Assembly: GCA_008802785.1 (NCBI GenBank)
Contig: VUYT01000017.1
Span: forward strand, 1-64,000
DNA length: 64,000 nt
DNA from: Symmetrospora coprosmae
Taxonomy: Eukaryota; Basidiomycota; Cystobasidiomycetes; Symmetrosporaceae
Direction of reading: 5' to 3'
Part shown: piece after piece, positions 16,379-34,700 of the stretch
Layout: each line of letters opens with the position of its first letter
Numbering within the stretch: position 1 is the stretch's first letter
Program-made: the position numbers and the translations under genes
Notes under the pieces: model-generated
Told to the model about the DNA's origin: nothing
The model's input: only the letters and a program-made list of their open reading frames with translations
Databases searched by the model: none

Positions 16379-17378
16379 GGTGTGCTATGGAGATGTGTGT
16401 GTGTGTATAGGTGCGATGTGGATAGTGGCAGGAAAGAAGCAACAAAGTGCGATGCGATGGATGCCGCCCTCAGCCGACAGGTGGCGGCGAGGTTCGTCGA
16501 GATTTCCCGGTGCAGCGGGCCCTTCCCTCTCTCTGCTGGCCAACCGGAGCTGCCCGGTTGCACCCGCACCCATCAACATGGCCGGGCTTGCTTCACAAAG
16601 CTCGTAAATTCAGACAGAGCATGGCTTCACTTCCGCACGGAGGTTTACTGATGGTCTACAACCTTTTCCGCCCGACTGATTGACTGTCTGCTCGCGCACG
16701 GACCGCCCAAGTGCGACTGACGGCTCCATGCGGAATGCACCCACTGATCGTTCACATCCCCTCAAGACCTCCCTTGCTGTACTGTCCCGCAACGCTTACT
16801 ACACATGGCATGACGGCGGACGAGATGAGAAGGCCAGCCGCCGAGCGATCGCTGCTAGACTGGGTTCGAAGCAGGCTGATGCGCACTCACCTCCTCACCT
16901 CCTCATTTCGAAGCTTTTCTGCCAGCGAGCCCACAAGAAACCTTGTCCTACAGGCTCGACCATATGGTGCACTCTCGGTCCTGGACGAAACGAGAGCTGG
17001 ACTTCCGACCCGGCAAGCCCCTACGCGCTCGACCCTTCAGGCCCCTTCGCCCCTTCCCCCTTCAGCAGGCCGCTATTCTCGGCCTCTGTACAGCCCGTAC
17101 TCTTCATTCGATCCACCCGACCATACAAGCACGTCTTAAAAACAGTACGTGACACTGAAAGGCTGCCGTCAACCTCGATCCACCCTTTCAGGTTTGGCTC
17201 CTTTGACCGGCTGCTGGCCAGATCGCAGCCGTGTGCACTCCACTATCGCACCCGTGGTGCACCACGAGTGCTATGAAACCGGCTCTCTATATCACGTTCT
17301 CCTCTGCTCTCGACATACTCTACGCACATCCCCTGTCCGTCCACCCACACGAGTCGAAGTCGGGGTTCAGTCTGCACG
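16379..17378. other. Intergenic: CYC1 upstream region and 5' flank of Cys/His-rich gene A
   Basis: About 1 kb between divergent genes. It includes a short GT repeat near 16394 close to CYC1. Long frames on the plus strand (for example around 16680-17276) have no repeated motif or family resemblance and were not called. A GGTTCGA near 16862 is not set in a tRNA fold. Confidence 0.4.
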
Positions 17379-17867
17379 ATGCCAGTCTACCGCAGAAGTC
17401 ATATTTCCGGTCCCGGAGCCCTGATCCCCCGCCTCACACCTCAGACATGCAACTGGCAGGCAGGCTGCACACAGCAACACGACCTGAGGAACGGTCGATG
17501 CATGCAACACCGCTGCTACCTACACATTTACAACGGCGTGAGATGCAACCAGGCACGAGAAGCTAGATCACACTATTGCGGAACCCACCGGGGCATGCCA
17601 GCCCTCCACTCGTGCAGCATCCCTGCCTGCGGCGGCCTGACCCCGCATCGAGGCAGCTACTGTCATGTGCACAATACCTGCGTCGTAGATCGCTGCGGAG
17701 AACAGCCTGCGGGTGGTGTCGGAAGTGCTTGCCGCGTCCATCGATGCGTCAACGGCTGCAGCGCGGCGAAGGCTCCCAACAGCCAATACTGCAGCACTTG
17801 CGATCGCGCGAACAACAGTCGACCGAACGCTCGCAGGAACGGCAACCCTCTGGGACGTCTTCTCTGA
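17379..17867 (+). CDS. Cys/His-rich protein A (tandem paralog pair)
   Basis: A single-exon frame of 162 aa. After about 22 ordinary residues it becomes an array of Cys/His clusters with a C-x2-H-x1-2-C rhythm: CNWQAGC..GRCMQHRC, then CGTH, SCSIPAC, YCHVHNTCVVDRC, GGVGSACRVHRC, NGC and YCSTC. Seventeen cysteines in about 120 residues, spaced this way, point to several bound zinc ions. The C-x4-GC-x7-GRC-x2-H unit recalls zinc repeats in WRKY19-like and similar eukaryotic proteins, but I cannot assign a family. There is no signal peptide or membrane segment. The paralog at 18680-19240 shares the C-terminal half closely, notably HN(T/A)CVVD and GGVGSAC..HRC. The first ATG of the frame was taken as the start. 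An intron in the short N-terminal part cannot be excluded. Confidence 0.72.
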   Translation: MPVYRRSHISGPGALIPRLTPQTCNWQAGCTQQHDLRNGRCMQHRCYLHIYNGVRCNQAREARSHYCGTHRGMPALHSCSIPACGGLTPHRGSYCHVHNTCVVDRCGEQPAGGVGSACRVHRCVNGCSAAKAPNSQYCSTCDRANNSRPNARRNGNPLGRLL

Positions 17868-18679
17868 AATCACGTGCTGGGAGATGTTGGGCAGTTCGGT
17901 CTGCTTGACAGCTCCGCTTCGCTTGAGACGACACATACACCGCTCAAGCATCATTCACACGATACCCTAGACAGCTTGCACAACAGCATTCGAGGTAGAC
18001 TGAAATAGCGAAATGCATTCCGGTCTGCCGCGTCTGAGCTTGGTTAGGTTCACTTCTACACGGGTGACTCACGTCTACGTTGTTCGATCTTATGCGCCTA
18101 TATCGCAGTGCTACACTCTTGCGGCTCTACTGACAGTAGATCAAAGGGAGCTACTGTATGCTGAACACACCAATGACGCATTGATCCTCGATACGGGTTC
18201 GATAGCAAAGGCGGGCTAATCTCTGCACTTTCGTGAAGCTCCACCGGAAGTAGCAGCTATCCTCCTCATCCGCCTTACTGCCGATGTCATGCCTAAAGCA
18301 GTCCGCCAAATCGCTCCGGTGACAGTCTACATCCCAGGATGCTACGATCGTCAGCTTAACCGCACACCCGTCAGGCTCCGTCCATCAGCTGCTGCTGACT
18401 TTAGCACGTATTGCGAGCCCTACGTGATATCCACCAGGTCACCTGGGCATCCTTTCAGGCTCCCGTCCCTTTCACGGCTCTTCGGTCTCGCAGCGGTGTG
18501 ATCCCAATCCTAGTGGCCATGGGTCCCTCCGCGAGCGGTATAATCACGCTGTCCGGCTTTCGGCGTCCTCTGTGCTCTGCTCCTTTCCGTCTGTGTGTCC
18601 GTCCTCCATACACAGCTCTTAACTCTGGTTCAAGCTCAGAAGTCAAATCCTCACTTCGCAGCCTCAACCTCGGAACGCC
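17868..18679. other. Spacer between the two Cys/His-rich genes
   Basis: About 0.8 kb without a supported gene. It holds the 3' end of gene A and the 5' flank of gene B. Its last part shares short similar blocks with the flank of gene A (CCTTTCAGG-x-GCTCC-like and TGTCCGTCC), consistent with duplication that included upstream DNA. Confidence 0.4.
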
Positions 18680-19240
18680 ATGCAACCACACCTCCCTCAT
18701 TATGGCCGGCTTGCCAAAGCTCCGCTTGCCCTACCCCAGGCTCGGAAATGTAACTACCCGGTCGCGTGGGGCGGATGCCAGGAGACAACGGGTCTCATGG
18801 GCGGCCGATGCATTCAGCACCGATGCAATTGGCCTGTCGCCGCCGGCGGCTGCCAGCAGACAAGGGGCCTCCGTGGTGGACGATGTCCCTGGCACCGCTG
18901 CCTGAACCACATCCATTCTGGCACATATTGCCCAAACGTACGGCCTGCTCACCTTGCTCACCATCTCGGTTTCTGCCATGCCCATCAAGATGCTCCACCC
19001 CTGCATCAGTGCAGCTTTCCACTCTGCCAGGCTCTGGTCAGTAAGCCTAGACAGCGGTGTGCAACGCATAACGCCTGTGTGGTGGATGGGTGCCGCGGCG
19101 CTGCCACTGGCGGAGTCGGAAGTGCGTGCGAGCAACACCGCTGCAGGAGCGGATGCACCACGCCGGGAAACCCGCTCTGCAATGTATGCTTGAGAGGCGT
19201 AGGGAACCAGCCTCATTCGAGGCGCGCCCACACGCTCTGA
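18680..19240 (+). CDS. Cys/His-rich protein B (tandem paralog pair)
   Basis: A single-exon frame of 186 aa with the same Cys/His architecture as gene A. It has two consecutive N-terminal modules (CNYPVAWGGC..GGRCIQHRC and CNWPVAAGGC..GGRCPWHRC) where gene A has one, so one module was gained or lost. It then follows gene A: GTYCPNV, GFCHAH, QCSFPLC, RCATHNACVVDGC, GGVGSACEQHRC, SGC and LCNVC. The protein should bind several zinc ions; the role is unknown. No targeting signal or transmembrane segment is visible. The two genes lie in the same direction about 0.8 kb apart, as expected for a local duplication. Differences are spread along the whole length, so the duplication is not very recent. 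Confidence 0.75.
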   Translation: MQPHLPHYGRLAKAPLALPQARKCNYPVAWGGCQETTGLMGGRCIQHRCNWPVAAGGCQQTRGLRGGRCPWHRCLNHIHSGTYCPNVRPAHLAHHLGFCHAHQDAPPLHQCSFPLCQALVSKPRQRCATHNACVVDGCRGAATGGVGSACEQHRCRSGCTTPGNPLCNVCLRGVGNQPHSRRAHTL

Positions 19241-19816
19241 GCGCATATAACGGGGCTAGCTGCTGAGAAGCTTGGACTATCGTAACCACAATCATCGTTA
19301 GCGCCCTAGAGTTGCCTCGCCGGTAGTTGTGTTGTGCTCATTCACTTGCCGGCCCTCGTGCGATTCGTTCTTGACGCTCTGGGCGGTCGCTCGTTTGCCT
19401 CACCCTGGAGACAGGCGGAGAGCCCGGAGAAGAGGCTGTAGTCTCAGTATTTTCAGCGCGTCAGCCTGTGTTAGAGCAATTGCGTGCAGCCGTTTCAAGG
19501 AGAGTGTCGATGCGGGTGAAGGATGGCCGCAAGGCAAGCGAGGTGCTCAAAAGGCTTTCGCCTTGCAGGAGGCATGTTAGTGCATGGCATTTTCATCAAC
19601 GCGATACACGAACACTTCATCTGCCAGGGGCGATGGTCGCGACTGCAGGCTGGCGATGTGGTTTCGACGCTGTGCCCTGTCCCGAGCTTGGAGGGAAGGC
19701 CGATCGGGGGTGGCCGCAGGGAGAAGAGGCACGAGGGAGGGCACGGGAGCCGGACTTCAGCTCGTCCTGGCTTGTCATTCCCCGTCCCCCACCACCACCC
19801 CTTCAAGACTGTCAGT
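19241..19816. promoter_or_regulatory. Upstream region of RPL5
   Basis: About 0.6 kb before the ribosomal protein gene. Frames here (for example 19468 onward on the plus strand) run through the RPL5 start and first intron without conserved motifs and were rejected. No specific ribosomal-protein promoter element could be named. Confidence 0.35.
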
Positions 19817-21539
19817 ATGCCGTTCCAGAAGAGCACGAAGACGGGTTAGTGCTGCTTGCTGCTGCGCTGCCGCTGCATTGGTGCCGCCTCCATCCGGGTC
19901 CAGCCAGGAGGGAACAGGGAGGAGAATTGGGAGAGCACAGGGAAAAGCAGCGGCAAAGTGGCATAGCGCGCCACAGGCAAACAGGAGACAGCAGCTGGCA
20001 CGGAGTGAGCAGCGTGGGCGTAGCGCTCCACAGGTTGCCGTTCGCCTCGAGCAGCTGCTTCCTGGCACTCCAGTATCTGCTGGGCGAAAGTGTCGGGCTG
20101 GCACCTGAGGCACTCAAGTCGCGGGAAGGACGCTCCTGGCTGGAGTTGGAGGAGGAACAGCACGCACAGGTATCCCAACCCAGTGAGACAGGGATGCTGA
20201 CATGCTATCGGCGTTCGGCGCTTTTCAATCGCCAACAGACCAGTACTTCTCCCGGTATCAGGTCAAGTACCGCCGCCGCAGGTGAGCGCTCAGCATCTTT
20301 TGAGGCTATCCTCCGCTCGCTCTCTTCGACGTGCACATACCATCCTCCACATCTACACGATGATCCAATTATCTTAGCATAGTTCAACCGAAAGGGAGAC
20401 AGAGATCCTGTCGACCTGCTGCGGACAAACACAGCACCATCTAACGTCTTTCGCTCCTATCTGATCTCATCTCACACCTACATCCCTGTGTGCACGCGTG
20501 GAGAGAGGGTGTGGAGCAGAGCCCCTCCTGGCGCCAGATCGGTCAGCTGACTTCGTGCTTCTTCTTCTGCTCAAAAGAGAGGGAAAGACCGACTACTATG
20601 CCCGCAAGCGTCTCGTGACCCAGGCAAAGAACAAGTACAACTCGCCAAAGTACCGCCTCGTCGTCCGCTTCACCAACAAGGACATTGTCGCCCAGATCGT
20701 CTACGCCAAGATCGCCGGTGATGTCGTCCTCACCTCTGCCTACGCGCACGAGCTCCCCCGATACGGCATCAAGCACGGTCTTACCAACTGGTCTGCTGGT
20801 GCGTTCACAACGCTCTCCATGCTAGTCGGGTCATTTGCTGACAACCACCTACCACATCTGCAGCCTACGCTCTCGGTCTCCTTGTTGCCCGACGTGCACT
20901 CACCAAGCTTGGCCTCGCCGACAAGTACGAGGGCGTCACCGAGCCCGAGGGCGAGATGAGCCTGACTGAGCACGCCGACGAGGAGGGACCCCGGCCATTC
21001 AAATGCTTCTTGGATGCCGGTCTCAAGCGAACCTCCACCGGAAGCCGAGTCTTTGGTGTCCTCAAGGGCGCTTCGGACGGCGGCATCCTGATTCCCCACA
21101 ACGAGAAGCGATTCCCCGGGTACGACCCAGAAGGCAAGGAGCTCGATAGCGAGGTCCTCCGCAAGTACATTGTGCGTTGGCATTGCGCCCTCCCAGGTCT
21201 GCTTGTCTTCGCGCTCTAAAAGCTAACCGCATTCCAACGCATCCCCAGTTCGGAGGTCACGTCGCCGAGTACATGGAGTCCCTCGAGGAGGAGGATGACG
21301 AGCGGTTCAAGAAGCAGTTTGCCAGCTACCTGGCTGACGACATTGGATCGGACGACATGGAGGAGATCTACGCCGAGGCGCACAAGCAGATCCGCGAGTC
21401 GCCCGAGGCGCAGTCCAAGCAGCGTAGCCAGGCCGACCTCGAGGCGTACAAGTCGGCGAGCAAGAAGTACTACAAGCCCAAGCTCACGTACGACCAGAGG
21501 AAGGAGCGTGTCCAGGAGAAGATTGCCGCCTTCCGGTGA
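19817..21539 (+). CDS. RPL5: 60S ribosomal protein L5 (uL18)
   Basis: Exons 19817-19844, 20239-20281, 20578-20798, 20864-21171 and 21249-21539 give 296 aa, the normal length. It starts [20 protein letters not shown] and continues [19 protein letters not shown], all typical of eukaryotic L5. Later signatures are [64 protein letters not shown] and the basic C-terminus. L5 binds 5S rRNA with L11 and joins the central protuberance of the large subunit. The first exon codes only nine residues and is followed by long introns (394 and 296 nt), much longer than the others in the window; early long introns are common in fungal ribosomal protein genes. Confidence 0.96.
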
Positions 21540-22149: not shown

Positions 22150-23896
22150 ATGCTCTCTGCAGCATCAGCATCGACGTCCTCGGTAGCCGCAGTCATGGCT
22201 TCCACATCGAGGCGCGCCCTCCTGCGATCCTTCTCCTCGGCCGCAGCAGCGCCTCGATTCCAACCTTCTTCCATAGCAACCAGCTCGGCCGCTCCCTGCT
22301 CAGCCTGCTACGGTGCCAGAGCAAGTCCTGCGTCTTCTTCGTCCTCCGCACCCTCCTTGTCGTTGTCGTCGGCCCCCTTTGCCCGCCGCGGCTATGCGAC
22401 CGCCACCGCCCCAAGATCGATGGCCACAGTCGTCAACTCGCCAGAGCAGCGGGCGCCGCGCTCGACGAGCGACAAGATCAGGGTGGACGAGCTCAACACT
22501 GCGCGGCCCGAGCCGGTCGTGCTCCACCCCATCAAGGAGGGTGCGGTGGATGAGGCCGTCAAGAGCCTGCGCGAGGACATTGGGCGGCCAATCTACCTCG
22601 ACATGCAGGCGACGACGCCCGTCGACCCGCGCGTGCTCGACGCCATGCTGCCCTTCATGACGAACCAGTTTGGGAACCCGCACAGCCGCACGCATGCGTA
22701 CGGGTGGGAGACGGAAAAAGCCGTCGAGGAGGCCCGCGAGCACATTGCAGATCTCATTGGTGCCGGGCCCAAGGACATTATCTTCACTTCGGGAGCGACC
22801 GAGAGCAACAATATGGCCATCAAGGGCGTGGCGCGCTTCTACGGCCGCGGGGAGGGCACCAAGGCGCGCAAGCATGTCATCACCCTACAGACGGAGCACA
22901 AGTGTGTCCTCGATAGCTGCCGGATCCTCCAAGACGAAGGATTCGACGTCACGTATTTGCCGGTGCAGAAGGATGGCAAGGTCGATCTCGCCGAGCTCGA
23001 GGCTGCCATCCGCCCAGACACATGCCTCGTGTCCATCATGGCCGTCAACAATGAGATTGGCACCATCCAGCCGCTTGAAGAGATTGGCGCGCTCATCAAG
23101 CGCAAGAACAAGAACACCTTCTTCCACACGGACGCTGCGCAGGCTGTTGGCAAGATCCCCATCGATGTTGATGCGTGCAAGATCGACGTCATGAGCATCA
23201 GCGGGCACAAGCTGTACGGCCCCAAGGGCGTTGGCGCGGCGTACGTCCGCCGTCGTCCGCGCGTCCGCCTCGAGCCCATCATCAACGGTGGAGGGCAGGA
23301 GCGCGGCCTCCGATCCGGAACCGTCCCTGCACCCCTGTGTGTCGGCCTCGGCGAGGCGGCGCGCATCGCAAAGCGCGAGATGAAGTTTGACCACGAGCAC
23401 GTCAAGCGCCTCAGTGACCGCCTCCTCAACGGCGTCATGGAGAAGTGCGAGTCGATTGAGCGGAACGGAGCCACGGACGGCTACGCCGGATGGTGGGTTC
23501 CATCTTCTTCTCGGTACTCTGTCCGAACTCGAGTCGAGTCTCGGGCCCTGACACACTTTGCTCATGCACTCCCTCGTTGCCGTGCGCAGCCTCAACCTCT
23601 CGTTCTCGTTTGTCGAGGGCGAGTCGTTCCTCATGGCCATGAAGGACATTGCCCTCTCTTCGGGTTCCGCGTGCACGTCGGCGTCGCTCGAGCCGTCGTA
23701 CGTGCTGCGCGCGCTCGGCGCCGAGGAGGACATGGCGCATTCGAGCATCCGGTTCGGCATTGGCCGCTTCACCACCGAGGGCGAGGTCGACTTTGTCACG
23801 AGCAAGATTGTCGACATTGTCACGCGCCTGCGCGACCTCAGCCCGCTCTGGGAGATGCACCAGGAGGGCATCGACATCAAGACGATCAACTGGTGA
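22150..23896 (+). CDS. NFS1: Cysteine desulfurase, mitochondrial
   Basis: Exons 22150-23492 and 23590-23896 give 549 aa. The N-terminal about 95 residues are rich in Ser/Ala/Arg, as in a mitochondrial presequence. The enzyme then follows NFS1 throughout: [70 protein letters not shown], the PLP lysine in [12 protein letters not shown] (about Lys354), [13 protein letters not shown], and the persulfide cysteine in [15 protein letters not shown] (about Cys476). It takes sulfur from cysteine for Fe-S cluster assembly with Isd11 and Isu1 and for tRNA thiolation. The single intron sits just before [12 protein letters not shown]. The long serine-rich front makes it longer than the yeast protein of about 500 residues. 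Confidence 0.97.
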
Positions 23897-24351
23897 GTGC
23901 CTTCTCTCCCGTGCCTGGGTGGCGGATGCATATGTGCGAGCAGGCGACATGGGCTGAGGTCTGATTTTGCATGTCCGTAGGTCACAACACTAGGCGTAGA
24001 CTGGACAGGGCGCCTGCTGTGCAGATATGAGGCACCTTGTATACCTAGCGAGAGGATCAATGTGCGGGCTGAGCTAGCCAGGGCTTGCGGGATGAGTCTG
24101 CTATCGCTTGGTCTGTTTCGTCTGGGCCTACCTTGCGTCGCCGTCCCTGCAGGCAGCCTCTATCGACAAGCCGCTGCTGCTGAACAACGTGAGGTGCCTG
24201 CCGACAGGACGACCCCCTTGGAGCAGCCGGCCGCTTGTGTAACGCTCTCCTCAGGCTGGTCTGTGCTTCCCGGACGCACGAGTCGTTGATCTTGGGAGAG
24301 CTGTCGTGTGCCCAGCCATTGTATGGATTGTCGATGTCTTGATGGTCGCCG
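23897..24351. other. Convergent 3' region, NFS1 / UXT-like gene
   Basis: About 0.45 kb between facing stop codons. Short frames on both strands lack support; a minus-strand frame across NFS1 is an antisense shadow. Confidence 0.35.
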
Positions 24352-25765: not shown

Positions 25766-28700
25766 ATGGACGACCTGCTCCATTTCCTGCGTGGCGAGAT
25801 TGCCATGGATGGCGATGATGGTGAGTGCCATGCCATGCGAGCGAGTCAGAGCAGACGAGCCCGGCCAGCGACACAACAAACAGCACACACAGAGCGCGAA
25901 GGGAAAGCTGCGTCTCGTAGAGACCCGTCGCGCGTCTACACTTTCCTGCACGTGTGTGTGTGTGTGTCCACAGTCCTGGTCGCAGTCACCGTGTTCAAAG
26001 CCCTCCTGCGACCTTGCGCAAGGATAAACGGGCGTATCTGCTCACAAAAGCTTCCACACACAAACACAATCATTGCGCACACCTTCGCTTCCATTTGCTG
26101 ATCTACGTTGCACCTCGTTCCTGCACATCCCTGTCCCACCTTCTAAAACTCCGCTTCCACCTCCGCGCCCTGCCCGGACCCCACCGCACAAAAGGCACGC
26201 CCGTCTCGCGACTCGATACCTTCATCGAGACACACTATACTAGGCTGCAGGAAAGGGACGACGAAAGCTGGGACGACGAGGACGAGGATGAGGACGGTGA
26301 TGACACCGACCGCAGGAAGCAGAACGTCGACGAGGCCTTCAAGGACTTCGTGTGGAGACAACTGTGCAACTTGCCAGAGATCAAGGTGGCACACCTCAAG
26401 AAGCCGGGAGAGACCATCGCCGCACCTTCTGGCAGGGATGCCAGCGAATCCGCCCAGTCGGGCCCGAAAGCAGGCGACGCGAGCATCGTGCCTGATCAGA
26501 GCGCGGACCCTTCTCTTGATCCAGCTCTGGCGGGCCACTCATCATCATCGTCTACCTCGCTCGCACTTCAGCCACAGCAAGATCGGTCTGGCGAGCTCGA
26601 CAGCGCCGCCAACTCCTCCTTCCTCCTGCCGCCCCTCCCGCCGCGACCTTTAGACGACCCCAGCACGAACGCCGCCCCGGCCGACGCCAATTCAAGCATG
26701 GCCATGGTCATCTTCAAGGACGCGCCCGAGGCGACGCCAAAGAACAAGAAAGGGGCCGTATCCACGACCGTGCGCGCCAAGAGGGAGCTGAAGGCCGAGC
26801 GCAGCGCCACGGGAAAGGGCATGAAGGCCCGAGATGCCCGCTTGGCCGGCGACGAGTACGAGTTCTGCGAGCTTTCGCCCGAAGAGAGGGCGCACAGCTC
26901 GAGGGCAGACCTCCTGGCCCGCTACGGCCCAGAGAGGCTGCGAGTCGCGGCAGACCCCGAAAGCTGCTATGCTTCCCTGACTGGCAGTCACGAGAGGGTG
27001 AGGATGCCGTCAGCGCACACGACTGCAGAGCAACCGGCTGACCATCTGTGACATTCGACCTGGAATTTCCTCTTCGTGCCCTGTGCAGCGCTCCAAGCTT
27101 ACCCACCATTCCTACCAGATCCTTCAGGCTATCGCCAGAGGCAGGGAGGATGGAAAAACTGTCATTCAGCTCGGGAAGGAGTTTGACCACGATCAGAAAT
27201 CACTGTTTCATTTTGTAAAGAATCTGCTCGACATGGGATTGATGTGAGTGCGCTGGACTCGGCGGCGCATAACAAGGAGCATAGACCTCTGAACCCATTC
27301 ATTCTTCGTTCTCCAAGTGTCAAGCTCAAGATATCAGACAAGAAGTCGACAACCTCTCGCTGCATCCACCGTCACTACCTCGAGACATCAAAGCACTGGG
27401 CACTCTGGCAGACAAAGGATCTCGGCTCCACCGAGCCGCGCACCGCCGGTGCCGACGAGGAGGAAGACGAGGACGACGTCGCGCCGCCTGCCATAATGTC
27501 CATCCTCACTGTCGCGCATGTCAACGGCAACGAGCCCCTTGTCCGAGCTCGCATCCTCGCCGCGCTCCGCCGCGAGCCAGATCACATCCTACCGCACTTG
27601 GACATCGTCTTTAAGATCGGCTTCACGCATCGCCCGCACAAGATGGTGCGCCGCCGAATCAACCGGATCATCGTATCAATGGTCAATCAGGGCCTGATTG
27701 AGAAAATTGGAGTAGCACGCGATTTTCACAGGGGCGAGCAGAGTTGCATCAGACTCCTTGAAAGTTCGCATACAGGGGAAGGACAGGACGCTACGGCGGG
27801 CGCCGAATCTGCTATCGAGGAGCGACCCAACTTCCTTGCTACACTGGCCGTCGAGAAGCAGATTGTTGATCTCCTTGCCGAAGCAGGAGCCAGCGGCCTC
27901 ACCATCCGCGAACTGCGCTCGGGCCTCGGCGACCTGAATGTGCGGATCCTCGAGACGATCTTGTCAAAGCACGAGCGGGCTGAGCACCCGCCGCACTTGT
28001 GCGACTTTGCGATCCACAGCGTGCTCGAGATTGTCGGACGCGAGAAGCGGCTGCGCTGGTTCACGATTGCCGGGTACAAGGAGCGGTGCCGCCTGGACGG
28101 GCTGAGCGACCTCGCCGACACGGTCAAGTTTTCGCACCCGGCCGAGGCCGGCGGGTGGTCGGCGCTCGAGTCGCTCGGCTTCTACGAGACGCCCGGCGCA
28201 TTTGACACGTACGCCGACAGCTGGGACTCGAGCAGCAAGGGCATTGATAGGTACGCCGCGTACCCGGAGGGCGTCCCAGGCAACGGCAAGAAGAAGCCGC
28301 GCGCAAAGAGCTCGTACCCGACTGGACAGCGCAGGACTGCGGACGGCAGGCCCCTCGGCCGCCCACGGGGCAGCACCAAGGCTGCAAAGCTGGAAGCCGC
28401 GTATGCCGAGGGGGACATCACCCTCGAGGAATACGAGAAGCAGAAGGCGCTCCTGCCAAGGTACAGGAAGACGACAGACGATCTTGAACGTGAGAAGCTA
28501 GAACGCGAGGCGCAGAAGGTCGCCTTCGTTGCAGCTGCTGTGGCGGATGGCAAGTCTGCAGAAGAGGCCGAAGCGGCATGGGAGGAAGCAGAAAACGCAA
28601 AGCGGGCTGCTCTGGGAAAGAGAAAGCGTGGAGCGTCTGGGTCAGCTGTACCGGTCGGGGCGGAGGAAGATGGCGCTCAGGAAGAGGAGCAAGAGGAGGA

Positions 28701-31700
28701 CTTTAGCGAAAGCGAGTTGGGCGCACCCGGCACGCCGGCCATGAGCGACAGCAGCACTCCAGGCCCAAAGCGGCCAGGGCGACCGAAGAAACCGCCGAGA
28801 CCCAAGCTCGCACCGGACGGCACGCCCTTCCCGCCTCCCGTCAAAGGACGTCCGCGAAAGTATCCCGTTGGCACAACGTCCAGAGAGCGCGCGAAGATAC
28901 TAGCAGAGAGCAGGATCGCAATGGGTCTTCCTCCCAGGGCGCCCAAGTCCCGGGCGAAGAAGTCGAACGAGGGTGAGGCGTCAACTGACGGGTGGCTTGG
29001 AAACGGAAAAGCGGGCCCGGCGAACAAGCCCAAAGAGCCGAAGCCGCGAGCGAAGAAACAGAAGGAGGGCGAGACGCCTGATGGGAATGTTGCAGCTGGA
29101 GAAGGAGGTGGTACCGACCCACAGAAGAAGCCGAGGAAGCCTCGAGCGAAGAAGCAGAAGACCGATGACGCTGCTGCGGACGAGGCCGGCGCCACCGCGG
29201 ATGCTTCCGCCGGCACTCCGAATGGCCAGGGTGTAGCTGCACCGACAAAGAAGCCCAGGGCAAAGAAGGCGAAGAAGGGCGAGGCCGATGCGGACGGTGC
29301 ATCAGCACAGAGGGGTGCAGGCGCCCCGGCAATTATTGACCTGACGGCTGGACCATCCATACCGGCATCTGTATACGCGCACGTCCGGCAAGCAGCTGGT
29401 GGTCAGGACCAGGCGAAGGCGACCAATGCCACGCCTGCTGAAGTCGTGGATGTCAACAAGCACTCGGAAGCTCGTGGGACCAGGCAGCAGACACCGCAGC
29501 AGCAGCAGACGACGCAGCAGCAGGCTGAATCCCTTCTCCGGCACCTCCATCCGGCCACCGCCGATAGTCAAAGGACCGTTGAACAGCCACGGTCAGGGCC
29601 ATCTCAGCCGGTCCCGCCGCTCCCGGCATCCTCCGAGCCAGCTCCGGCAGATTTCCCTGCAGCTCCCGCGGAGGTGCCTCAGCAGACATCTCGCAACATC
29701 CAGGCGGTGCTCTCGCCACCTCGCGGAGAGCAGGAAGTTCACATGGCGAGACCAGCAACGCCTGCCGCCGGTCCTGAAGCGCAAGCGCAGACAGGATGCG
29801 ACCAAGAGCTGCATCTCGCGGTGCAGGCGTCTTCATCGCAGACGTCTCCAGCCCAGCCTGTTGCTGGTCAGTCAGCGACAGCAGTCAAGGGCCCGAGTGG
29901 CAGCCCTGCTTCGATCCGGCAGGCTTCACTCCGCACATCCGACGGCATCGAGCAGTCCACCCCCGCGATGAGACACAGGAGGCGCTCGTCACTGAGCTCA
30001 CAGCCCTCCGGCAGGCCTGACTTTGTCGATAAGCTGCCACCATCGGGAAGGCAGCGGCGGGCGAAGCGTTTCCGTGAAGAGTCCGTCAGTGCAAGTACGA
30101 CTGTCTCTATCGATGCTGAGGACGAATCTACGTCGGAAGCAAGGAGGGCAAGGCTCGGGCATCGGGGCGCTTCAGGGGCTGAAGAACTCGAGCCGAAACA
30201 TGGCACTGAGCAGGCTGAGCACTACGAGGCCTTCGCCAATCTTGCACCTGCAACACCGGCGCAGCCCGGCAACGCAACAATGATAATGGATGTTTCCGAT
30301 TCAAGCGTGCTTGGTGACACGACCGCAGACGTTCTAAGAGGAACCGAGACTCCGGCCAGGAGCGCTAGTAAACAGGGGGATAAGAAGCGTAAAGCCGAGC
30401 CTCTTGCGCCAAGCGAGCCTGACGGCCCGCCTCCACCGAAGCGCGGCAGAGGTAGACCCCGCAAGTACCCTCGTACTGGCCCGGACCCAATGAAGCCATT
30501 CAAGTACGGCATCTACCCCAATCTCGTCCTGTATCCGCCTGTGGTGCCGCGAACGCCGCTAGAGCCAGATGCACGCAAGACACGGAGGCAGATCAGGGAG
30601 GAGGGCGGCTCGGCGTCTCCTGCTCCTATCAGCACCGAGCAAGAACCTTCCATGCGCGATCTGCTAAGTCGGTTCAACCAGCCACGACACGCTAGTCCGC
30701 AAGCTCCAGCTTCCCCGCACCTGCCCGCTCCAGATATGCTTTCGGAGGCACAGTCTGAGCCTCCGCCGACGACGCCAGCGATGGTCAATTCTGTAGCTTC
30801 GCCATCATCAACGGCAGCAGCAGAGCCGGAGGATGCAATGCTAATCGATGGCACTTCGGCCATCTCGCAGGATGTGCAGGCCAGCGAGCTTGCAGCATAT
30901 CCATCACTGCCTCCGCTGCCGCCGAGCGTAGGCTACACACTCCCGGAGATGCCGCTTCCCTCGGCAGGAACAACTGCCTTCGCAGGCGCCGACGCTGGAA
31001 TGCTCATCTCGCAGCACAACGGCTCCTTCCCTTCCGATACGCACTTCTTGAACCTCGCAGGCAATGGCGTGCAGAATGGGGCAGGCACGATCGCCTTGAT
31101 TCCCGCCAATACGGTAACAGAGCCCAGCAAGAGTGAGCACTGTGCCTCTTCTATTCACGCCAAGCAGAAGTCAGCTGACGTCGCTCCACCGCAGAACCTG
31201 AGCGCAAGAACTATTCTATCATGATCCACGAGAATGAGCATGCGCTCTCGCTCAAAGAAGCTGGCGGTATTGCGACCGAAGGCTCGCAGTTCACCAAGAT
31301 CTGGCAAGCGTACATGCAGAAGAAGCACGGGTTGGAGCAGCCGCCGAACGCACTCGACCGGCGCACTCACGCCTCTGTTATGCGAGGGCTGCAGACCCGA
31401 GGGCAGGTCAAGCGCACCGTCATCCAGCTGCAAGGCGCAAACGGCAAGATGACGCAAACGGCGGTGTACCACCTCGCCGAAGTCAGCCTTGACGGACCCG
31501 AGATGCAAGCTTTCGCCAAAGCTCTGCAGGACGAAAAGTTCAACATGAACGTCAAGACCAACTGGCTTCCCGGTCGCAAAGTCATCCGCAAGAAAGCAGC
31601 CAAGCCGGAGGACAAGCGTGTCCGCAATCGAGCGGAAAGGTCCGCTCTCCTCGAGGCTAGCATACACTCCGAGATGGACGCACGCGCCTTCTTCGGGCAA

Positions 31701-34700
31701 GAATGGCGTATCGTTGCTCAGAAGTACGGATGGCAGTTCGGCACCATCGGCAAAGCCAGAACGCTGCACGAGTTCCTGGCAGAATCGATCAACGACGACA
31801 ATGACTCCTCGTTCATCATCTCTTCCAGTCCGGAAACGCGAATCTTCGCCTCGCCATACGTCATTCACGATTTGCCTCTCGCGCTCTATCTGAAGCTCCA
31901 TGCAGTGCACGGCCATCTAGGTTCCGAGCTGCAGCAGCTGGACGACTACCTAGCCGGGGAGGGCAACCCTGCCCAAACGCCAGTCTCTCGTCTCCCTCAG
32001 GAGATCACCAAGATGCTTCTGCCAGAGAAAGCCAGCAACGTATCCAAGACGAACCAGCTTCTTCGCATCCTCGTGGCATTCCGCGTCCTCATCCCGATCG
32101 AGCAGACGGAGACGGTCACATCGATTGTCGCTTACTCTGGCGTGGATAGGGAGCCGCGCTACTTCCGGGAGCGTGAATTCGACGGGAGTGTATACTGGAT
32201 GCTTGCCAACACTTCGCCAATCTATGATTTGCACTCCAGTAAAGGAGGCAGCCAGGTCCTGGTCAGCGAGCAGAGCACCCTGGACCTTGCCGGAATCGAG
32301 CAGTACTGGGACACTACCGAGGCGATAACGTTCAGAGCACTCGACCCAAGCGAGCTTCTGCCACCCAACAACGATCATCCCGCAACCCTCCATCTGGACA
32401 GCACTATCGCTCCAACAGCAAAGATGGAGTCCCGCTGGCAACGCAGCTACATGCTCTTCAGGCTGCAGAAGCAGTACATCGAGCGGATCGTGTCGGAGCA
32501 AGGAGGCGCAGCTGCCTTCCTCGATGACGAAGAGGGCTTGAATCAGCTGGCATACAAGATTTGGGCGCCTGTAGATGTCGTCCGGACCCATGTCGCCCGA
32601 CTAGCAAACGAGGCAGAGCGTCAGCTCATGGAGGTACAGAGCAAACCATCTCGGCGTACGAAGAAGAAGAAGACCAAGAAGAGCAAAGCCGTGGAGGCAC
32701 ATGTACTAGAGTCTTCGGACTCCGAGCCTGGGGTCATCGAGAAGCCCAGGCGAAAGGGAAAGAAGAGCAAGAAATTGAAGCGCAGGCTCGCTGCTGAGGA
32801 GCGCGGCGAGGCCGACCTTGGGGCTATGCGCGCAGAGACGCGCCAGCAGGAGGAGAGGTCTGAGGCAGCACCAAAGTCGGTCAAGCAGAAGAAGAGCACT
32901 GCTGATCAGATCCTCGCTCGTGGAGCCAAGTCGTCCAAGCAAGGACGGGAGCAGATGTGGGATGCCATCATTGGGCGGTTCGTGGCAGAGCATGGTGCCG
33001 CAGAGGAAGCGCTTGATCCAGACCAGCTCGAATTCCTTCGGGTATGGTTTGTCAGCCCCGGCGGAATCAACGCCAAGGATCTTCAGCAGCACCTGGAGAC
33101 GATGCTCGAAGACGCCGCCCTCGTGCAGCTGCCGCTCCTCTCGTCCAAGAAGGCTGTCCTGAATCGCCCGGATCTCGGTAAGGGTAAGCCAGAGGATGCA
33201 GCTACGGTCAGCAAGATCACGCAGGCGCGACGCGGAGCGCCGGCCAAGCCGAGCGAGAAACGCATCGCAAGAGCTGCTCGTGCACCGGAGGCCGAACCTG
33301 TTCCGGAGCTGCCCTTCACGCTTCCAGATGTCTGCTTTGGTGAGTTGGCACTTTGCGCATCTTGCCGTCAACTTGCCCCTTCTGACTGTCTTGTCTGATA
33401 GTCGTTCCCGAGGACGCACCGCGAAAGACTCCGGCGCACGGATGGTCAGAAGCCGAAGACGACCAGCTTCGTGACTTCTACGTCATCCTCCAGTCTCGAG
33501 CCAATCACCTGAACGTCAGATTGAGCCTCGAGCCCGCCCGCGCGTTCTATCCTGGCCTGACGAGCAAGATCCTGGTCGATCGCTTGCGCCGGCTTGCGTC
33601 CATGCACGGCGACGCTCCCTACCTCGATGTCCTCCAAGACACCTGGCAAAAGCTGTGGCTGGCGGCGCGGGCGAAAGGCGAGGTGCCCGATCCGGAGCCT
33701 AATAACTTTGGAAGGTTTGACATTGCGAAGCATCGCACCTTCCTCTGCGCCAATGTCAACAAGCAGTCAATGTGCGCCCCGGATATGGTCGGCGGATTTG
33801 TGCATGCTGGGGAATGCGGGCTGATCAAACGTACTCCCTCTTCGCAGCCGCTTCCAAGCCATGGATCCAACACGTTCAGCATCTGCGCTATATCGCGATC
33901 TACCGCTGGATGCCAGAGATCTATACGCATCATGCCATATTGATGCGCCTAACCCGCTCCGCAAGGACGACAGCCCGAAAGTATGGGACTACCTGTACTC
34001 GACTATCACCACGGCGCTCAAGGAGAAAGACTACAAGTACAGATCTCTTACTCGGCCGCTCGCTAGGCTTGATCAGGCTGTAGAGGCCGGCATCTCTAGC
34101 AACGACCGGGCCGCCGCCTTCTCTACGAGGTGAGACCACACGTCACAGTAGTGGCTTGCTCCGTGTACAAGGCTGACGTGCGCACCCGTGCGTCGCGCTC
34201 CCTGCAGATACTGCTACAGAGACCAGAAGATCAGCTTGGAATGCCTTGAAGGGGCTGGGAGATGCGAGAGTAGCCTCAAATCGCAGGAGTCGACCGTTTG
34301 GCCCATCCCTGTCGAGGACGGGGAGATGCTGGCTCTGTCACACCTGTTCTCCGAAGACTTGGTAAGTGCCCGACCTGCCGAGTCGTGGAAGCTAGGTACA
34401 CGCTGAGCATGACTCACTTCGCACCGTCCCAGGTCAATTTCGAGGTCGATACATTATCCACCCTTGAGAAGCGGCCTTACCGAGATTATCGCACGCGGAA
34501 GATCGGTGCGTGCGGCATTACGTTCGTGGTCAGCCAGTCGTGTACGCCTCTGACGGTCCCGGATGTGGTTGCGCACAGATGACGAAGCCTTCGAGCACGA
34601 CATGAGCGTTTCGCTGAAGGAGTCCTACAAGAGTCTGACTGCGCCTTTATTCGACATGATCACATTGCCTCCGGCAGAATCTCCTTCCGCCAACGAAGCT

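What the first reader, a model, noticed from the sequence alone, without database searches (positions are those of the whole stretch)
17379..19240. Tandem pair of uncharacterised Cys/His-array proteins
Two single-exon genes in the same direction code 162- and 186-aa proteins packed with C-x2-H-x-C clusters. They share HN(T/A)CVVD and GGVGSAC..HRC, but protein B has two N-terminal C..GC..GGRC-x2-H modules where A has one. Seen directly: the cysteine spacing and the duplication. Inference: a multi-zinc structural fold, loosely like the WRKY19-type C-x4-C-x9-C-x2-H repeat. I know of no named fungal family with this layout. They are almost the only intron-free genes in an intron-dense region.
Basis: partly seen in the sequence, partly recalled or inferred. 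Interest (0 to 1): 0.8.

Follow-up and report, generated by a model that had tools for sequence, protein, structure and literature searches.

The report
Paired orphan zinc-module repeat proteins
Two neighbouring genes in a fungus-like genome encode small proteins built almost entirely from repeated, probably metal-binding modules that match no catalogued protein family searched, so they look like a real but narrowly distributed family whose job is unknown.

Summary
Two intact + strand ORFs, A (17379-17867, 162 aa) and B (18680-19240, 186 aa), are diverged paralogs (40% identity over 148 columns). Every cysteine fits one repeat, C-x(3-9)-C-x(7-14)-C-x2-H, closed by a CCCC module: 5 modules in A, 6 in B. 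No other open frame of the window has two such modules. B's extra module is a diverged tandem copy of 25 codons. The frame looks real: A has relatives at 96% and 75% identity, and A-B differences concentrate at third codon positions. Pfam, NCBIfam, PHROGs, PADLOC and PDB sequences gave only chance-level matches; the WRKY19-type model did not match. A profile search of 5.8 billion proteins added no relative, and protein searches of the host assembly find only these two copies. Structure prediction failed (pLDDT 33 and 44). Best reading: a lineage-restricted pair of basic, probably intracellular multi-zinc proteins, 2+3 modules in A and 3+3 in B around an eight-residue hinge, most likely binding nucleic acid or bridging proteins. 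Zinc, fold and function are inferred, not shown.

The parts
17379..17867 (+). ORF A, 162 aa, five Cys/His modules, pI 9.5
   Evidence: relatives P0003 and P0004 start at the same Met
17448..17510 (+). A module 1, C-x5-C-x10-C-x2-H (aa 24-44)
17514..17588 (+). A module 2, C-x9-C-x10-C-x2-H (aa 46-70)
17589..17612 (+). A eight-residue hinge with the conserved P-x-L-H (aa 71-78)
   Evidence: alignment; in P0003 the L of P-x-L-H is H
17613..17672 (+). A module 3, C-x4-C-x10-C-x2-H (aa 79-98)
17679..17741 (+). A module 4, CVVD..GGVGSAC-x2-H (aa 101-121)
17745..17801 (+). A module 5, C-x3-C-x10-C-x2-C (aa 123-141); its second Cys is Gly in P0004
18680..19240 (+). ORF B, 186 aa, six Cys/His modules, pI 9.4
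18749..18820 (+). B module 1, C-x8-C-x10-C-x2-H (aa 24-47), in the first copy of the 25-codon tandem unit 18749-18823
18824..18895 (+). B module 2, C-x8-C-x10-C-x2-H (aa 49-72), in the second copy of the unit 18824-18898; 50 of 75 nt identical to the first
18899..18985 (+). B module 3, C-x9-C-x14-C-x2-H (aa 74-102)
18986..19009 (+). B eight-residue hinge (aa 103-110)
   Evidence: alignment
19010..19069 (+). B module 4, C-x4-C-x10-C-x2-H (aa 111-130)
19076..19138 (+). B module 5, CVVD..GGVGSAC-x2-H (aa 133-153)
19142..19189 (+). B module 6, C-x3-C-x7-C-x2-C (aa 155-170)

Best explanation
A and B are two old tandem paralogs of a lineage-restricted family of small, basic, probably intracellular proteins. 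Each is a chain of CCCH mini-modules that ends in one CCCC module; each module most likely holds one zinc ion (about 5 in A, about 6 in B). Modules are joined by one or two residues (H-x-C or H-x2-C) within two blocks, 2+3 modules in A and 3+3 in B, and the blocks are joined by an eight-residue hinge. I think the arginine-rich zinc blocks bind nucleic acid, RNA or chromatin DNA, or bridge partner proteins, and that B gained a module by tandem duplication of 25 codons (or A lost one). Shown: frames, module periodicity, paralogy, conservation of nearly all Cys in two relatives of A, basic charge, no hydrophobic N-terminus. Inferred: zinc as the metal, the fold, the location, nucleic-acid or partner binding.
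For: All 35 Cys of the two proteins fit the repeat. Among the window's open frames (1002 of at least 40 aa) only A and B have two or more modules. A-B identity is 40% over 148 columns with third-position excess: 87 of 138 aligned codons differ there, against 62 and 60 of 138 at positions 1 and 2, chi-square p 4.5e-4. NG86 gives dN 0.66 and dS 2.62, dS being saturated and so rough. The sense frame is conserved far better than the antisense frames (E 4e-29 against 0.043). P0004, identical at 116 of 153 aligned positions, keeps 19 of 20 proposed ligands (hypergeometric p 0.02); P0003 keeps 20 of 20, uninformative (p 0.45). pI is 9.5 and 9.4, and no 15-residue window starting within the first 20 residues averages above 0.2 on the Kyte-Doolittle scale, so no signal peptide is apparent (no dedicated predictor was run). 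A fixed C-x2-H end in each module fits zinc sites better than disulfides (established knowledge).
Against: No structure or family match supports zinc or nucleic-acid binding. Both AlphaFold models failed (mean pLDDT 32.7 and 43.7). P0004 lacks one ligand of module 5, so that module may not bind metal in all members. Three further His columns are invariant among the four sequences (A H49, H65, H77) and could make the real ligand sets different from the ones I assign. Codon-position G+C of the two stop-to-stop frames (third position 0.64 and 0.62, little above the other positions) shows no strong coding signature. B has no relative other than A's group and itself.
Confidence: 0.5

Rival explanations
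1. Metal buffers: A and B are metallothionein-like proteins that store or sequester zinc, copper or cadmium, without binding a macromolecule.
For: About 10% cysteine, 16 and 19 Cys; small size; tandem gene copies, as metallothioneins often have (recalled).
Against: No CC and no C-x-C occurs in A or B (Cys positions), whereas metallothioneins are dense in them (recalled definition). Each Cys is spaced as part of a separate CCCH site with conserved non-Cys residues between (HRC, HN-x-CV, GGVGSAC), which points to folded modules.
Confidence: 0.15
2. Transposon-derived cysteine cluster: the modules descend from, or work like, the CxC clusters that accompany KDZ transposases, captured as free-standing genes.
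For: Such a cluster (CxC7) is described as zinc-chelating and was hypothesised to recognise DNA sequences or chromatin proteins (passages of PMC12062965). From recall, some contain paired C..C..C-x2-H units of similar spacing. Apparently single-exon genes without other copies in the genome fit a captured piece.
Against: No Pfam CxC model appeared for A, B, P0003, P0004 or the 11 single modules at E up to 10. The CxC6 and KDZ models found nothing in this genome, though no control genome rang, so absence is not shown. The stretch 16900-19400 matched only itself in the genome.
Confidence: 0.12
3. Secreted cysteine-rich protein (effector or cell-surface protein) with disulfides instead of zinc.
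For: Small, Cys-rich, apparently lineage-restricted, paralogous: the common profile of fungal secreted proteins (established knowledge).
Against: No hydrophobic signal-like stretch at either N-terminus, A's start Met is shared with both relatives, and the fixed C-x2-H pairing is not expected of disulfide proteins.
Confidence: 0.08
4. The pair are incompletely drawn exons of larger genes, so the small intron-free proteins as drawn are not the real products.
For: The downstream neighbours are spliced. A short in-frame likeness of A's N-terminus to the open frame just upstream of B's ATG (19 bases at 79%, repeat D4; frames) suggests B's start may have moved, or is chance.
Against: P0003 and P0004 share A's start and most of its length, and P0003 its stop. 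No module is found in the 812 bases between the ORFs.
Confidence: 0.12

Closest known systems
Zf_WRKY19 (Pfam PF24906)
   Different: The Pfam model does not match either protein nor this place in the genome
zf-TRM13_CCCH (Pfam PF11722)
   Same: CCCH ligand order; 1 of 4 full-length family members gave a chance-level match, E 5.1
   Different: One finger in a tRNA methyltransferase (recalled), not an array of five or six; no match to A or B alone
zf-C3Hc3H (Pfam PF13891; KANSL2/INO80D type, recalled)
   Same: Two C..C..C..H units in sequence (recalled)
   Different: No match at E up to 10 in A or B, none in the genome
CxC clusters of KDZ transposases (Pfam PF18721 and kin)
   Same: Zinc-chelating cysteine clusters proposed to read DNA or chromatin (passages of PMC12062965 on CxC7)
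   Different: No model match; no KDZ transposase found in this genome, without a positive control

Membership tests
Zf_WRKY19 (PF24906) | Score above the curated Pfam cut-off (27 bits) | tested here: not met
   No match of A or B at E up to 10; genome search finds only two sub-threshold places on other contigs
zf-TRM13_CCCH (PF11722) | Score above the curated cut-off (20.9 bits) | tested here: not met
   Only row is E 5.1 in 1 of 4 members; the genome search lists no match on this contig
zf-TRM13_CCCH (PF11722) | Lies in a tRNA methyltransferase (recalled) | tested here: not met
   A and B have no Pfam domain
zf-C3Hc3H (PF13891) | Score above the curated cut-off (27 bits) | tested here: not met
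CxC6 of KDZ transposases (PF18721) | Score above the curated cut-off (27.5 bits) | tested here: not met
   No match at E up to 10 for A, B or the 11 single modules
CxC6 of KDZ transposases (PF18721) | Linked to a KDZ transposase | tested here: inconclusive
   No KDZ found in the genome, but no control genome rang
Metallothionein-like metal buffers | Dense C-x-C and C-C runs (recalled) | tested here: not met
   No CC and no C-x-C in A or B (Cys positions)
Zinc-binding tandem module protein (general kind) | Regularly spaced four-ligand Cys/His sets conserved in relatives | tested here: met
   11 of 11 modules complete in A and B; 19 of 20 ligands kept in P0004, 20 of 20 in P0003
Zinc-binding tandem module protein (general kind) | Binds zinc | not testable with these tools
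   Needs purified protein

The most novel reading that the evidence does not exclude
A new zinc-repeat fold: CCCH units chained by one or two residues into rigid zinc-nucleated rods, two rods per protein around a fixed hinge, that grow or shrink by whole units of about 25 codons. It would have arisen in one fungal lineage and been recruited as a nucleic-acid or chromatin-binding scaffold.
Probability: 0.25. Interest if true: 0.6.

Novelty: new variant of a known kind. Interest (0 to 1): 0.4.

Why it matters
If right, this is an uncatalogued zinc-repeat family in which the whole cysteine content of the protein is set by metal sites. It would be a compact test case for how a folded repeat protein arises and gains modules in a lineage-restricted gene, and the spacing data are enough to write a profile that can look for more members in fungal genomes not held here. 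As it stands it is one of many orphan Cys-rich families; its unusual feature is the completeness of the array.

Tried and rejected
Structure: AlphaFold on B with all four sequences and on a two-module piece of A with three other two-module pieces (alignment) gave models too poor to search (mean pLDDT 32.7 and 43.7), so no fold search was run. Alignment A3 came out in mixed register and was not used.

Other copies in the genome: the first DNA pattern, for the GGVGSAC motif, gave 7 places, 2 of them A and B. Two weak protein matches lay on C26 (E 0.035) and C5 (E 0.16). A six-frame scan of the loci fetched for these and other off-contig places (33,598 bases in all) found no open frame with two or more modules. 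DNA of 16900-19400 matched only itself. A genome-wide count of such arrays was not obtained.

Collections: no relative in viral contigs (0 of 41 pattern stretches confirmed) or in prokaryote genomes (0 of 163); neither is a fungal collection. The 5.8-billion protein search gave 1 hit for B (itself; 38 candidates), 2 for A (13 candidates) and 3 for the profile, none new (2192 candidates); it sees only relatives that share short exact words. PDB sequence matches were chance-level: prophytepsin E 0.67 for B, none for the full profile, and for the single-module profile a sperm-tail repeat protein E 0.65 and TRIM21 E 4.6. zf-A20 matched 2 of 11 single modules, best E 0.68: rejected as chance.

Literature: eight searches listed no paper that I recognised, from titles and starts of abstracts of the rows shown, as describing this layout, for the name of the WRKY19-type finger, found 0 papers. 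Only passages of PMC12062965 and PMC10608323 were read. LWL85 and YN00 failed on the A-B codon alignment; only NG86 ran. In one search a 100-base perfect match between 'downstream of A' and 'upstream of B' is an overlap of my own two query windows and means nothing. The Rfam scan of the window was empty.

Full report
What is there. ORF A (17379-17867) and ORF B (18680-19240) lie in the same direction, 812 bases apart, and are open from ATG to stop. About 576 bases after B comes the ATG (19817) of a spliced ribosomal protein uL18/RPL5-like gene (named by me from its sequence), and then an NFS1-like cysteine desulfurase (Aminotran_5, E 4.3e-77), both on the + strand.

Anatomy. Written as ligand spacings, every cysteine of A and B falls into the unit C-x(3-9)-C-x(7-14)-C-x2-H, the last unit ending in Cys instead of His: five units in A, six in B. 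Between units there are one or two residues, except for one eight-residue linker in the same place in both proteins (RGMPALHS in A, QDAPPLHQ in B). So A is 2+3 modules and B 3+3. B's first two modules are a tandem copy of 25 codons, 18 of 25 residues (my count on the printed pair) and 50 of 75 bases identical, with synonymous divergence already high (NG86 dS 1.9), so this is not a recent event. Three further histidine columns are invariant among the four sequences (A H49, H65, H77).

Is it real. The unit count is far above composition: 0 of 20,000 shuffles reached it for either protein (the pattern was defined after looking). In six frames of the window, with 1002 open frames of 40 aa or more, only A and B hold two or more units. 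The two proteins are 40% identical over 148 alignment columns, and differences pile up at third codon positions (87 of 138 against 62 and 60; p 4.5e-4). Between the two genes with their flanks, blastn reports three short matches inside the ORFs, one 16-base match between flanks at E 0.38, and an overlap of my own query windows; a 19-base repeat at 79% links A's N-terminus to the stretch just upstream of B. Relatives of A exist in other samples: P0003, 156 of 162 positions identical, and P0004, 116 of 153. In P0004, 19 of 20 proposed ligands are kept (p 0.02); the lost one is the second Cys of the last module, so that module may be dispensable. The protein collection lists B itself with a longest contig of 1265 bases, which is not the 413,571-base contig of this assembly. 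Against a strong coding signal, the third-position G+C of both frames (0.64 and 0.62) is little above that of the other positions.

What it is not, as far as tested. No match in Pfam, NCBIfam, PHROGs or PADLOC for A or B at E up to 10; HMMER's filters drop most weak matches. The only Pfam rows among the four full-length sequences and the eleven single modules are chance-level: zf-TRM13_CCCH E 5.1 in 1 of 4 and zf-A20, best E 0.68, in 2 of 11. PDB sequence searches were empty or chance-level. The WRKY19-type model does not match here.

How it probably works. CCCH sets with a fixed C-x2-H end, an excess of Arg over Lys (19 to 1 in A, 17 to 3 in B), pI near 9.5 and no hydrophobic N-terminus suggest a zinc-folded intracellular protein that touches nucleic acid or acidic partners. 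[quoted passage not shown] a KDZ-linked CxC cluster was hypothesised to recognise DNA or chromatin proteins (passages of PMC12062965). These are analogies, not membership. Zinc, fold, location and binding are all inferred. Both structure predictions failed, which with four sequences each says little either way.

Verdict. The interpretation as an undescribed multi-zinc family is the best available but untested at the bench, and its true spread among fungi is unknown because no fungal genome collection was on hand. I rate it as a new variant of a known kind (tandem zinc-module protein), interest 0.4.

Noticed in passing
window 19817-21539 +: Spliced ribosomal protein uL18/RPL5-like gene directly downstream of B, pieces in several frames (named from its sequence by recall).
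   Followed up: partly
window 22150-23964 + and beyond: NFS1-like cysteine desulfurase (Aminotran_5) whose C-terminal part continues in another frame, so it appears to have an intron.
   Followed up: partly
window 18623-18679 +: The open frame just upstream of B's ATG shares a short in-frame stretch with A's N-terminus, hinting that B's start codon may have moved downstream; could be chance.
   Followed up: partly
window 27496-31221 and 31221-33395 +: Two long open frames (1242 and 725 aa from the first Met) with no Pfam match at E up to 0.001.
   Followed up: no
window 18731-19246 -: 171-aa open frame antisense to nearly all of B, and a 128-aa one partly antisense to A (17568-17954); their likeness to each other is weak (E 0.043), so they look like by-products of the sense frames.
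   Followed up: yes
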